The position numbers and the translations under genes were made by a program. A stretch of 64,000 nucleotides of DNA from Dichomitus squalens LYAD-421 SS1 (taxonomy: Eukaryota; Basidiomycota; Agaricomycetes; Polyporales; Polyporaceae): positions 264,939-328,938 of the forward strand of contig NW_006766905.1 in the NCBI RefSeq assembly GCF_000275845.1, written 5' to 3'. Positions within the stretch are counted from its first letter, which is position 1. Every line of letters begins with the position of its first letter. Shown piece after piece: positions 41,937 through 54,200 of the stretch. Under the pieces are notes generated by a model that was not told where the DNA came from, did not search any database, and saw only the letters and a program-made list of their open reading frames with translations.

Positions 41937-42378
41937 TTGGAAGGAAGGATAGTCCAGCCCTATGTCCCTCGTATTGCTATCGTATGTTCGGTTCTCGTCT
42001 TGCAGTATAATTCTCTTGTATCAGACTTGTAGTCATGTACCAGTTCCTCCGATTGGTTTCAGAGCCGCCGAATACAGTCGCTGCAAATCACCAATCAGAA
42101 TCAAGGACGATGCCAGTCCCAAAATCATTCCCGTTCCACAATTTATCGACTAACGACAAGCTACATAACCCTTTTCAATCTACGGCGACAGGAGTCCCAG
42201 CGCCGCAGAATGAGCTATCGTACACCGTAAGAGACATGCTGTCCCAATCCCAACTCGCGTTGAGCGGAGACGGGTAGCACAAGAAAGGAGTGCATATGGA
42301 TGAGTCGTTCGAGTCCGCGTATACATTCCGTTGTCTTTTTTCGAGTCGTTCCCAGAGGAGCACTGTGCCACCAGGTGC

Positions 42379-44191
42379 TTACTTGCGGCTGCGGCTGTCT
42401 CCGCGGCCACGAGAGCCAGAGCCATGGCGGCGGGCCTCGAGCTACATAGGGGCAGATCAGTCGCATGCAATGTTAATCGCAGGGAGGCAAACGTACCGCG
42501 CGGCGGTCGCGACTGTCTCCGCGACCGCGGCTACCGGAAACGTGACGGCGAGCCTCAAGCTTCCTTCACGTGTCAGAAGGATCCTTGTAAGGCATGCAAA
42601 AGACTCACAGCGCGACGGTCCCTGCTGTCACCGCGTCCGCGGCTGCCCGAGCCGTGGCGGCGAGCCTCGAGCTGAGATGTTGTCTGTCAATGGTGGCCTG
42701 AGAAGAGGATGCTATCGACATACTCCACGACGGGTCCTGCTATCGCCACGGCCGCGACTGCCGGAGCCATGACGGCGGGCCTCCAGCTGAAGAAACCACA
42801 TAATTAAGTACAGAGCGATGTGGACAACTTGGCAAGGTGCCTACCGCGCGGCGGTCCCTGCTGTCGCCGCGACCGCGGCTGCCCGAGCCATGACGGCGAG
42901 CCTCAAGCTGCTTGGATGTCAGAATGATCCATATATGATGTGCGAGCGACGTACAGCGCGGCGGTCCCTGCTGTCACCGCGACCGCGACTTCCGGAACCA
43001 TGGCGGCGGGCCTCGAGCTGGAAGGGCTAGTGATCAACTAGAGAGCGACGTGTCAAACTCGAAAGGGTGCCTACCGCACGGCGGTCCCTGCTGTCGCCGC
43101 GACCGCGGCTCCCGGAGCCGTGACGGCGAGTCTCAAGCTGTTTCAAGATGTCAGCATTCTCCACACAAGGCATGTGTGAGCAACGCACAGCGCGGCGGTC
43201 CCTGCTGTCACCACGGCCACGGCTCCCAGAATCATGACGGCGAGCCTCGAGCTATCATACTAGGAGTTAGAAAGCGAATTGCAAGACATTCATTCGGAAC
43301 GTACTCCACGGCGAGTCCTGCTATCGCCGCGGCCGCGAGAACCTGAGTCTCCGTGACGGCGAGCCTCGAGCTGCAGAATGAGACGATCAATCCCTGAGAG
43401 ATGCGTGACTATCTGAAGTGGCGCGTACCGCACGACGATCGCGACTGTCTCCACGACCGCGACTGCCGGAGTCGCCGTGGCGGCGAGCCTCGAGCTATGA
43501 AGGTTTGTAAGCAAAAATAGTGGAACATTGTGTTGGTGGCATACTGTACGGCGGGACCTGCTATCGCCACGACCGCGACTCCCAGAGCCGTGACGACGGG
43601 CCTCGAGCTAGTATTTGGTTAATAAAGCGTTCAGGTGATAACAGGCTAGTAACGTACTTCACGACGAGTCCGACTGTCACCGCGGCCGCGAGAGCCTGAG
43701 TCTCCATGACGGCGAGCCTCGAGCTTCAATACTCTGTCAGAGGCCTATACCTAAGTGATCGTGTGATCAACTTACAGCGCGTCGGTCCCTGCTGTCACCG
43801 CGGCCACGGCTTCCGGAACCATGACGGCGGGCCTCGAGCTGGACAGGGTATGATTAAATGCTGATCTATATGAGAACTTGGAAGGTTGCCTACCGCACGG
43901 CGATCCCTGCTGTCGCCGCGACCCCGACTGCCAGAGTCGCCGTGGCGGCGAGCCTCGAGCTATTTCAACCCGTCAGAATTATCCAAATATGATGTGCGAG
44001 GGACCTACAGCGCGGCGATCCCTGCTGTCACCACGACCGCGACTTCCGGAACCATGGCGGCGAGCCTCGAGCTAGAAGCAGTAGCTGTTAGTCTACTGTT
44101 TTAACAGCGTCAAAGGCATGCATACGTCACGACGGGTCCTGCTGTCGCCACGACCGCGGCTGCCGGAGTCGCCATGGCGGCGAGCCTCGAG
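42379..44191 (-). repeat. Array of sixteen repeated mini-exons
   Basis: Near-identical 63-66 bp coding units alternate with diverged 47-58 bp introns, giving a period of about 107-121 bp. Differences among units are mostly synonymous, plus one optional Asp codon after His-Gly. Some introns are also related: 44008-43960 and 42954-42908 share most of their sequence. Introns beginning GTAGGCA recur after mini-exons 3, 10 and 12, which suggests duplication of two-exon blocks. Confidence 0.9.
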
Positions 44192-44527
44192 CTGGCAGAG
44201 CGAACTCAGAGTCAGTCTCGGCAAGCGAGGGTGATGCAAAAGTACATACTCCGCGACGGCTACGGCTGCCTGAGTCACCACCGTGACGGGGGTCCCGAGC
44301 TTCGACCTTGGCGGGGCTTCGGCCTCTGACAGGGATGTCCACTACGATGCCCTTGTCGACGAGAGCGTTAGTGGGTGAAGCGACCTCGACGCTACCCGGA
44401 AGCTGCGAGAACAAAAATAAGAGAGGGAATGGATGAGATGAGCTACACCATAGCTCACAGGAACAGCGGCAACGGACGAAACGACCGCCGCGATGACGAG
44501 CAAAATGAAGTTGTTCTTGAACTGCAT
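42379..44527 (-). CDS. Secreted mini-exon repeat protein, Kex2-type peptide precursor (novel)
   Basis: Eighteen exons, all joined in phase 0, about 414 residues. Exon 1 (44527-44459) is a signal peptide, MQFKNNFILLVIAAVVSSVA. Exon 2 (44402-44250) is a leader ending in a degenerate unit (VEARDPRHGGDSGSRSRRG). Sixteen mini-exons of 63 or 66 bases follow, starting at 44191, 44071, 43959, 43838, 43723, 43607, 43494, 43370, 43251, 43137, 43017, 42907, 42786, 42671, 42559 and 42441. Introns are 47-58 bases. Each mini-exon encodes LEARR (once LETRR), then typically HGSGSRGRGDSRD, then RR and one variable residue. The last ends RSRK and TAA (42381-42379). Kex2-type proteases cut after RR, so a set of 13-14-residue basic peptides is expected. 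The architecture resembles fungal Kex2-processed repeat proteins; the repeat itself I do not recognise. Every splice site is canonical and every frame is intact. Confidence 0.85.
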
Positions 44528-44614: not shown

Positions 44615-44621
44615 TTATATA
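44615..44621 (-). promoter_or_regulatory. TATA box of the mini-exon repeat gene
   Basis: TATATAA on the minus strand about 90 bases upstream of the start at 44527, a spacing like that of the other TATA boxes in this window. Confidence 0.5.
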
Positions 44622-51206: not shown

Positions 51207-54200
51207 TCACCGCCGCGCCTGCGGAGACGCGGGCTTGCCGGTCGGGATGGGGGCATGCGGAACAGGGGCATGAGGGAGACGAAGCTTGAGGCCTGCAATT
51301 CGCGATGTCAAAAAACAGGGGTCGACACACTGTACCAGGAAGTGCTCACCGAGGTCCTCAGCAATGAGGTCAGCGCCCTTCTCGCCGACCAAGAGGGCGG
51401 ACGAGTACGTGTTCGTGCCGAGGTTATCTGGGCATATCGAGAGGTCGACGCACTTGAGGTTCTCCGTACCGTAGACGTTGAGACGCTTGTCGACAACACC
51501 ACCCTGCTCGCGCGGCTTCATTGCGCAAGTGCCGAGCGAGTGCCAGGTGGTCTCGACGTGGTCCGCAATCCAGTCGTCGATGGCCTTGTCATCCTCCTCG
51601 GTGTACTTGATGTCCTCGTGCACCTTCGACGCGTCGAAGGGCTCCGACGGGCGGTGCCACGTACCCATGTGGATACCGACGGTCAAGCTGTTCGGGAGTA
51701 TCTCCCTCGCGGTCTTGATATCGATGTCGCGGCATGCCGCAGATGAGTCGGGGTGGAAGTGCGGGTGGTGCGAGGCGAGCTCCCCGCGGAAAGCTGTGGG
51801 CAAACGTGAGCGAACTGTAAAACTGCAGAGGCTCGAGAAAGCCCTCATACCATCCATGCGGCGGGCGACCTCACGCGTCTTCTTATAGCTCCAGCGGATC
51901 GGCGCGAAGTCGGCCTTGTTATTCATGAAGCCGGAGTCAAAGAACGGCTCGACGTATGGGTTGGCGCTCTTGATGTGGATCTTGCCGCGCGACGCGGGGT
52001 ACTCGAGGTACTGGAACATCGTGACGTACTTTCCAGGCGGGAGGAGGGAGTGGTCCGCGTATGCGCCCGCGACGATGGAGCCGAACATGACAGGCTTGTC
52101 GGGCTTGTCCTTGAAGTAGCGGTCCCAGAGCTCGTTGAACTCGGGGCCCATCTCCTTCAGCTCCTCCTCGGTGGGACGGATCTTGAATCCAGCGTCGATG
52201 GCGTTCGATGAGAGGCGCGCCTTCTCCGGGCTGGTCTCCCACTCGGCGAAGAGCTCCTTCTGGACCTCCTTGTCGCCACGGAGGAAGTCGTCGAGGGTCG
52301 ACGTCTCATTCGAGACACGATAGACTAGGAAGTTGAGATAAGTGAAGACAATCAGCATCTTTCGCGGGCTAAGTCAGGAGAGCGACTCACTGGAGAGAGT
52401 AGTGTAATGGTCCTGGTACTCCTCACCGACGCCCGGGAGGTCACTAACGACGGGGATGTTCAGCTTGTTCAGGAGCTCGGCGTTACCGACACCAGAGCGC
52501 TCGAGGATCTACGCCAAAGACCGATTTAGATCCATGTCGCACGACATACAGGGCCCGAAGATTCGCTCACCTGCGGAGTACCGAGCGTACCGGAGCTCAA
52601 CACGACCATCTTGCGAGCCTTGACGATGGTCTCGACGACCTGCCCATTGTTCGCACGATTGCGCGAAGGCACATAGGCGACACCGACGGCCTTGTTGTTC
52701 CCGTCGAAGAGGACGCGGTTGACGCGCGCGTTGCAGCGGAGATAGAGATTACTCTGCACGTCCATGACGCTGTGGACATACGCTGCGGGAAAGGATCATT
52801 ACTCGGTTTACGTTATGGCTAAGTAGTATGGCCCATACCAGTTGCGGCATCGGAACGACGGCCGGTATGGCGATTGATATACTTCGCCCAGATCTCAGCG
52901 CCGTGAGCGGTCTTCAGATCCTGAATATCATCTGCCGCGAACGCGTGTCATCTTTTATTCAAGATGCGAAAACCTTGAGAATCTGAAACCTACCGCTATA
53001 GGGAACGCCAATGGCGTGCGCTGCGCGGAGGAAGTCTTGAGCCACAGGCTGAATCTGTCCACCGTTGCTGATGGCGATAGGGCCGTCGTAGCCGTGAGTG
53101 TCGTTGTTCACCGGCTTCTGGTAGTTCTCGAGACGCTTCATGAGGGGGAGGAGGTCGTTCGCGGTCCAGCCCTCCATCTTGAAGTCGTCTGTGTAGTATA
53201 AGTCAAGTTAACAGTTACTACTATACGTCCTCGACCAACTTACCCCAGTCGGAAGCGGATGCACGAGTGTACATCTGGAAGTTGATACTGGAACCACCGC
53301 CTAAGATATTCGCGCAAGGCACGATGGCCTGGCGACCACGGAGGTACGACGACTTCATGGTGTCCGTGTAGAACGTGGCTTTGTCATTCCTGGGATACTG
53401 TGGTAAGCGACCCTTCGTGACTCTGCAGGACCCAAAGGCACTTACACCCCATCGCGCTGCATGTTGCGCACGTAAATACCGGGGCGGTACACCCAGGGGT
53501 CATCGCGGTTGTTTGCACCACCTAGCACAACATAATGTCAAAGGCAAGACTTGGGCTCCAACAGGTCTGTACGTACCCTCAATGAGCATGACCTTGAGGG
53601 TGGGGTCGGCATAGGCGAGACGGCCAGCAACGACGGACCCAGCGGGACCACCACTGTGGGAAGGGTCAANNNNNNNNNNNNNNNNNNNNNNNNNNNNNNN
53701 NNNNNNNNNNNNNNNNNNNNNNNNNNNNNNNNNNNNNNNNNNNNNNNNNNNNNNNNNNNNNNNNNNNNNNNNNNNNNNNNNNNNNNNNNNNNNNNNNNNN
53801 NNAAGGATCATTACTCGGTTTACGTTATGGCTAAGTAGTATGGCCCATACCAGTTGCGGCATCGGAACGACGGCCGGTATGGCGATTGATATACTTCGCC
53901 CAGATCTCAGCGCCGTGAGCGGTCTTCAGATCCTGAATATCATCTGCCGCGAACGCGTGTCATCTTTTATTCAAGATGCGAAAACCTTGAGAATCTGAAA
54001 CCTACCGCTATAGGGAACGCCAATGGCGTGCGCTGCGCGGAGGAAGTCTTGAGCCACAGGCTGAATCTGTCCACCGTTGCTGATGGCGATAGGGCCGTCG
54101 TAGCCGTGAGTGTCGTTGTTCACCGGCTTCTGGTAGTTCTCGAGACGCTTCATGAGGGGGAGGAGGTCGTTCGCGGTCCAGCCCTCCATCTTGAAGTCGT

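What the first reader, a model, noticed from the sequence alone, without database searches (positions are those of the whole stretch)
42379..44527. Secreted precursor built from sixteen one-peptide mini-exons
The gene has a signal peptide exon, a leader exon, then sixteen 63-66 bp exons. Each is phase 0 and encodes the same basic unit with RR sites on both sides of a 13-14-residue core. All seventeen introns are canonical and the last unit ends with a natural stop, so this is a maintained gene, not a decayed satellite. Fungal Kex2-processed repeat proteins and some fungal ribosomal peptides use signal peptide plus repeats plus dibasic sites. One exon per peptide with near-uniform exon size is unusual, and I recognise no family. 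The predicted products are arginine-rich and strongly basic, so signalling, wall binding or antimicrobial roles are possible; which one is unknown.
Basis: partly seen in the sequence, partly recalled or inferred. Interest (0 to 1): 0.92.

Follow-up and report, generated by a model that had tools for sequence, protein, structure and literature searches.

The report
Mushroom multi-peptide precursor, one peptide per exon
A fungal gene carries sixteen copies of a short peptide, each on its own tiny exon; it looks like an overlooked member of a known class of secreted multi-peptide precursors, and its job is not known.

Summary
On the minus strand 18 exons (44527 to 42379) join into 414 codons: signal-peptide exon, leader exon, sixteen 63/66-nt exons, each LEA-RR-core-RR-x with a 13-14-residue core. 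All 17 introns are GT-AG and phase 0. Between units dS is 1.16 and dN 0.07: strong purifying selection.

It is not an orphan. Three searches gave 31 related proteins, none with a function name; 16 are named, from 14 Agaricomycetes species; the six species looked up span five orders. Shared signature: a similar signal peptide and repeated RR-HG(D/S) units. Three distinct public sequences seem to read an intron through at the same junction, and 6 of 31 hold out-of-frame units above shuffled noise.

Best reading: a KEX2-processed repeat protein (KEP) releasing sixteen hydrophilic, linear peptides with N-terminal His; no UstYa hit on this contig. "Strongly basic" fits the precursor (+65), not the trimmed cores (0 to +2), so a cationic antimicrobial role is unlikely. 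New: the mini-exon layout, which makes whole peptides the unit of duplication or skipping. Transcription, cleavage and function are untested.

The parts
44615..44621 (-). TATA-box-like TATATAA, 88-94 nt upstream of the ATG
   Evidence: sequence; consensus only
44459..44527 (-). exon 1: signal peptide MQFKNNFILLVIAAVVSSVAAVP
   Evidence: similar N-termini in relatives; no signal-peptide predictor was run
44250..44402 (-). exon 2: leader LPGS...VRGRSPAKVEARDPRHGGDSGSRSRRG, ends with a degenerate unit
44126..44191 (-). unit 1, core HGDSGSRGRGDSRT
44009..44071 (-). unit 2, core HGSGSRGRGDSRD
43894..43959 (-). unit 3, core HGDSGSRGRGDSRD
43776..43838 (-). unit 4, core HGSGSRGRGDSRD
43658..43723 (-). 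unit 5, core HGDSGSRGRGDSRT (acceptor AAG)
43545..43607 (-). unit 6, core HGSGSRGRGDSRS
43429..43494 (-). unit 7, core HGDSGSRGRGDSRD
43305..43370 (-). unit 8, core HGDSGSRGRGDSRT
43189..43251 (-). unit 9, core HDSGSRGRGDSRD
43075..43137 (-). unit 10, core HGSGSRGRGDSRD (spacer LET instead of LEA)
42955..43017 (-). unit 11, core HGSGSRGRGDSRD
42845..42907 (-). unit 12, core HGSGSRGRGDSRD
42724..42786 (-). unit 13, core HGSGSRGRGDSRT
42609..42671 (-). unit 14, core HGSGSRGRGDSRD
42497..42559 (-). unit 15, core HVSGSRGRGDSRD (acceptor AAG)
42379..42441 (-). unit 16, core HGSGSRGRGDSRS, then RK and the TAA stop; P0005 and P0014 also end in RK

Best explanation
A KEX2-processed repeat protein (KEP) gene. 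The pre-mRNA is spliced to an 18-exon message (inferred from the sequence); the protein enters the secretory pathway through its signal peptide (inferred); KEX2 cuts after the dibasic RR pairs on each side of each core (inferred), and a KEX1-type carboxypeptidase trims the C-terminal arginines (inferred). One precursor would thus yield 16 linear peptides of the kind HG(D)SGSRGRGDSR(D/T/S), each starting with histidine, plus short xLEA spacers. The peptides most likely act outside the cell as an endogenous signal or interaction peptide of Agaricomycetes (weakest step, about 0.4). Because every unit exon is symmetric (phase 0), recombination in introns or exon skipping would add or remove whole peptides without breaking the frame, so peptide number is the variable that the layout leaves free. 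Shown: gene layout, coding selection, existence of relatives. Inferred: expression, cleavage, function.
Against: No transcript, protein or peptide data; secretion and KEX2 cleavage not tested. The N-terminal profile was not controlled against unrelated signal peptides, and 11 of 26 sequences were not found by it at E below 1e-3. The xLEA spacer is about as conserved as the core, which a pure spacer would not require. Knock-out of C. cinerea kep genes gave no detectable phenotype (PMC9769878 abstract), which speaks against an essential signal.
Confidence: 0.8

Rival explanations
1. The secreted protein is not cleaved into peptides but works intact as a disordered, Arg/Ser/Gly-rich wall or matrix protein; the RR pairs are part of its charge pattern.
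For: Precursor net charge +65 over 393 residues, and a spacer as conserved as the core.
Against: The dibasic pair plus H stays fixed in relatives while cores differ in length and charge; precursors of this class are cleaved in related fungi (PMC9769878).
Confidence: 0.12
2. Cationic antimicrobial peptides are released from the precursor.
For: Three arginines per trimmed core, many copies per precursor.
Against: Trimmed cores here are 0 to +2 and, but for one V, have no hydrophobic residue; of 35 distinct family cores 17 are neutral or negative.
Confidence: 0.05
3. RGD-type adhesion peptide: the GRGDS in each core imitates the integrin-binding motif.
For: GRGDS in 16 of 16 cores here.
Against: Not the conserved part of the family: 14 of 35 distinct cores have GRGDS, 20 of 35 any RGD; the cores read in P0003 (Steccherinum) and P0021 (Psilocybe) have none. 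The role of RGD is recalled, from no call.
Confidence: 0.03
4. A decaying minisatellite that only looks like a gene.
For: The array is detected as a tandem repeat with a period of 230 nt, two modules.
Against: Open frame over 18 exons, dN/dS 0.063, third-position variation, relatives with a similar signal peptide and the same unit; exons average 79% pairwise identity and introns 55%, intron cores 0.51 against 0.48 for shuffled ones.
Confidence: 0.01

Closest known systems
KEX2-processed repeat proteins (KEPs): PMC9769878, PMC6339444, PMC7329392
   Same: Signal peptide (by inspection here), three or more near-identical repeats, KR/RR between them, repeats make up a large part of the protein
   Different: Each repeat is its own phase-0 mini-exon; the word exon occurs in none of the three main texts, and intron once, about intron-less cloning. 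Core begins with His; the spacer is xLEA between two RR pairs, not an XA/XP run as in STE13 substrates
Dikaritins (ustiloxin-type cyclic RiPPs)
   Same: Repeat precursor with KEX2 sites
   Different: Cyclised with DUF3328/UstYa proteins (PMC7329392 abstract); here 5 UstYa hits lie on contigs C11 and C27, none on this contig; no EDYXI core (motif from PMC6339444)
Ascomycete alpha-type pheromone precursors
   Same: Several peptide copies separated by dibasic sites and short spacers
   Different: No STE13-type XA/XP run; [quoted passage not shown]
Schistosome micro-exon genes (PMC4350168, passages)
   Same: Secreted products coded by many very small symmetric exons, so that splicing can vary the product in frame
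   Different: No relation claimed; one dibasic-flanked peptide per exon is not described in the passages seen
Ustilago Rep1 repellents
   Same: KEX2-processed repeat precursor of a basidiomycete
   Different: Rep1 peptides form amyloid-like fibrils (PMC9769878 passage); the present cores are hydrophilic

Membership tests
KEX2-processed repeat proteins (KEPs) | N-terminal signal peptide | tested here: inconclusive
   Charged start, long hydrophobic stretch and AA before the likely cut, by inspection; similar N-termini in relatives; no predictor run
KEX2-processed repeat proteins (KEPs) | At least three similar repeats bounded by KR/RR (criterion of PMC6339444) | tested here: met
   16 cores, each preceded by RR; 15 followed by RR, the last by RK
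KEX2-processed repeat proteins (KEPs) | Repeats cover at least 15% of the protein | tested here: met
   The 16 cores sum to 213 of 414 residues
KEX2-processed repeat proteins (KEPs) | Actual cleavage by KEX2 in vivo | not testable with these tools
   One P_proprotein match in the genome; cleavage itself needs peptidomics
Dikaritins | UstYa/DUF3328 gene near the precursor | tested here: not met
   5 UstYa hits, all on contigs C11 and C27; the window is on C23 (exon-wise search, counts are lower bounds)
STE13-matured alpha-type pheromone precursors | XA/XP dipeptide run between the KEX2 site and the core | tested here: not met
   Spacer is xLEA-RR and the core follows the second RR directly
Any Pfam family | Match to a curated profile | tested here: not met
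   0 families for the first 203 residues at E up to 1 and for 10 of 31 relatives at E up to 0.01

The most novel reading that the evidence does not exclude
An old, unnoticed Agaricomycete peptide family whose released peptides start with a free N-terminal His-Gly-(Asp/Ser), selected for binding a metal such as copper outside the cell, with the amount of peptide set by how many symmetric mini-exons are kept during splicing. The evidence does not exclude it: H follows spacer plus dibasic pair in 57 of 59 places, and skipping any unit exon but the last, which holds the stop, keeps the frame. The metal chemistry of an N-terminal His is recalled, from no call.
Probability: 0.1. Interest if true: 0.85.

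Novelty: new variant of a known kind. Interest (0 to 1): 0.55.

Why it matters
At least two of the three KEP studies start from predicted proteomes (PMC6339444; PMC9769878). A precursor split into one exon per peptide is easily mis-predicted: some relatives carry apparent retained introns or out-of-frame units, so a widespread peptide family may have been undercounted or missed. The layout also offers a test of how peptide copy number evolves and whether splicing sets peptide dose.

Tried and rejected
Cationic antimicrobial reading: set aside because trimmed cores are near neutral. RGD adhesion motif: not the conserved feature. Cyclic dikaritin: no UstYa hit on the contig. Decayed satellite: rejected by the codon pattern. 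Paralogues in the own genome: none beyond this array; weak overlapping hits to P0021 in shifted frames at C25:342278-342488 (E 0.06-0.10) were not examined. Relatives' DNA: the search for related loci on viral contigs returned errors for lack of a usable stretch and was dropped; genome contigs holds bacteria and archaea and was not scanned. Solved structures: 0 matches with alignment A3. Structure prediction was not run.

Literature: none of the five unit strings RRHGDS, LEARRHG, HGDSRGR, HGSGSRGR, HGDSHGRR is in the held full texts. Searches for mini-exons or exon duplication in such proteins gave 0 papers; one search listed 2 genome papers, not opened. One search listed 12 papers, of which the three KEP papers were opened. 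One search listed 1 (PMC8786786, passages: its proteins have a single intron); one search listed 1 (PMC4350168, passages); one search listed 4, not opened; one search listed 9, of which PMC3192844 was newly opened by passages (an unrelated histidine-rich family). Of PMC7329392 I saw the abstract and term counts only; of PMC6339444 the abstract, section 4 part 1, section 10 and section 24; of PMC9769878 the abstract, passages, section 4 part 1 and section 7. Supplementary tables could not be read, so the family may already sit among the 838 types of PMC7329392.

Full report
What is there. Translation of the minus strand shows a signal-peptide exon (44527-44459), a leader exon (44402-44250) and sixteen unit exons (44191 to 42379), with a TAA stop. 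In all 1245 nt, 414 aa. All 17 introns are GT-AG and phase 0, 47-58 nt; 15 of 17 acceptors are CAG or TAG, 2 are AAG. Each unit exon reads LEA-RR-core-RR-x (one has LET; the last ends RK and stop). The exon border lies inside the spacer between two dibasic pairs (RR-x|LEA-RR). A TATA-like box lies 88-94 nt upstream of the ATG.

More than chance. The longest chain of open 57-72-nt exons with 45-65-nt gaps is 16 on this strand, 6 on the other and 3-6 in five block shuffles. The first 60 nt of 15 unit exons (the last left out) average 79% pairwise identity, the 15 introns between unit exons 55%; intron cores are hardly above shuffled ones (0.51 against 0.48). Nei-Gojobori counts over all pairs of 16 units give pS 0.589, pN 0.069, dS 1.16, dN 0.073, ratio 0.063; codon position 3 varies in 21 of 22 columns, positions 1 and 2 in 6 and 5. 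14 of 17 introns have a length not divisible by 3; of the other three, introns 3 and 12 hold in-frame stops and intron 11 would read through. So each unit is kept by selection on its amino acids, not by recent homogenisation of the whole array. Some modules are younger copies: two-exon modules starting at exons 4 and 13 (0.82), 11 and 13 (0.80), 3 and 12 (0.78), 4 and 11 (0.78) are the most alike.

Mini-exons in relatives. Three distinct read-through stretches, V...Q of 51, 54 and 63 nt between RR-x and LEARR, occur in P0014, P0015 and P0005/P0008 (a fifth match of the pattern, in P0003, is a unit and not an intron). P0007 shows the same for intron 1, by eye. They fit GT...CAG introns at the same junction, but no DNA was seen. 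A profile of the unit in its two wrong frames matches 7 of 31 proteins; in shuffles it matches 0 of 620 and 2 of 620, best 6.8 bits, so the P0019 match (5.9 bits) is noise and 6 of 31 stand: P0001, P0002, P0004, P0008, P0015, P0027. Three of these are named gene models (P0001, P0002, P0004), most simply explained by mis-predicted splicing; real frame shifts or assembly errors are not excluded.

What the peptides are. After the tested spacer forms plus dibasic pair the next residue is H in 57 of 59 places: 15 of 15 in the window and 42 of 44 in 22 of 31 relatives. Trimmed cores here carry net charge 0 to +2 (His and termini not counted). A pattern that demands H at the start gives 35 distinct cores from 22 of 32 sequences (the window included), with charges from -2 to +4; a few run past an unclear border. 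GRGDS, in all 16 cores here, is in 14 of these 35. The shortest is HGDSHG (P0021 Psilocybe, P0018 Sphaerobolus). What looks old in the family is the start HG(D/S) and the RR frame, not the charge or the RGD.

Surroundings. At the 3' side, convergent on the plus strand, lies a replication factor C large subunit gene (RFC1 C-terminal domain; AAA and Rad17 matches), and on the far side a GMC oxidoreductase fragment at 51207-52358. 5 of 10 ORFs scanned had a Pfam match at E 0.01 or better, one of them (SPT6_acidic) under its cut-off; no peptide-modifying enzyme was seen among the ten, but the flanks were not scanned completely. UstYa hits are on other contigs.

Comparison. Of the Le Marquer criteria (section 24 read) the repeat and coverage criteria are met (213 of 414 residues), the signal peptide by inspection only. 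The word exon is in none of the three KEP main texts. The family strings are in no held paper. Supplements were not readable, so 'undescribed' reaches no further than those searches.

Mechanism and weight. KEP-type precursor 0.8; within it an extracellular signal or interaction peptide is my guess, about 0.4. The layout means that recombination or exon skipping would change peptide number without frame damage; that this is used is inference only.

Noticed in passing
window 52791-54102: Two identical 300-nt stretches 1012 nt apart; ORF limits repeat at the same spacing up to about 54.6 kb, so a recent duplication of about 1 kb or an assembly artefact.
   Followed up: partly
P0001-P0031, N-termini: The signal peptide looks unusually conserved across orders: 12 of 31 proteins start M-x-F-(K/N), with much alike hydrophobic stretches.
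   Followed up: partly
window 42379-44191: The spacer LEA between the dibasic pairs is nearly invariant (one LET of 16) although a cut-out spacer should drift.
   Followed up: no
window 42377-42384, minus strand: The terminal AAG TAA GC contains a donor-like GTAAGC, as if the last unit ended where a donor site is now read as a stop; P0005 and P0014 also end in RK.
   Followed up: no
intron 11, window 43138-43188: The one intron of 17 whose retention would keep the frame without a stop (51 nt).
   Followed up: no
G000 C25:342278-342488: Weak overlapping hits to P0021 in shifted frames, perhaps a short-period repeat.
   Followed up: no
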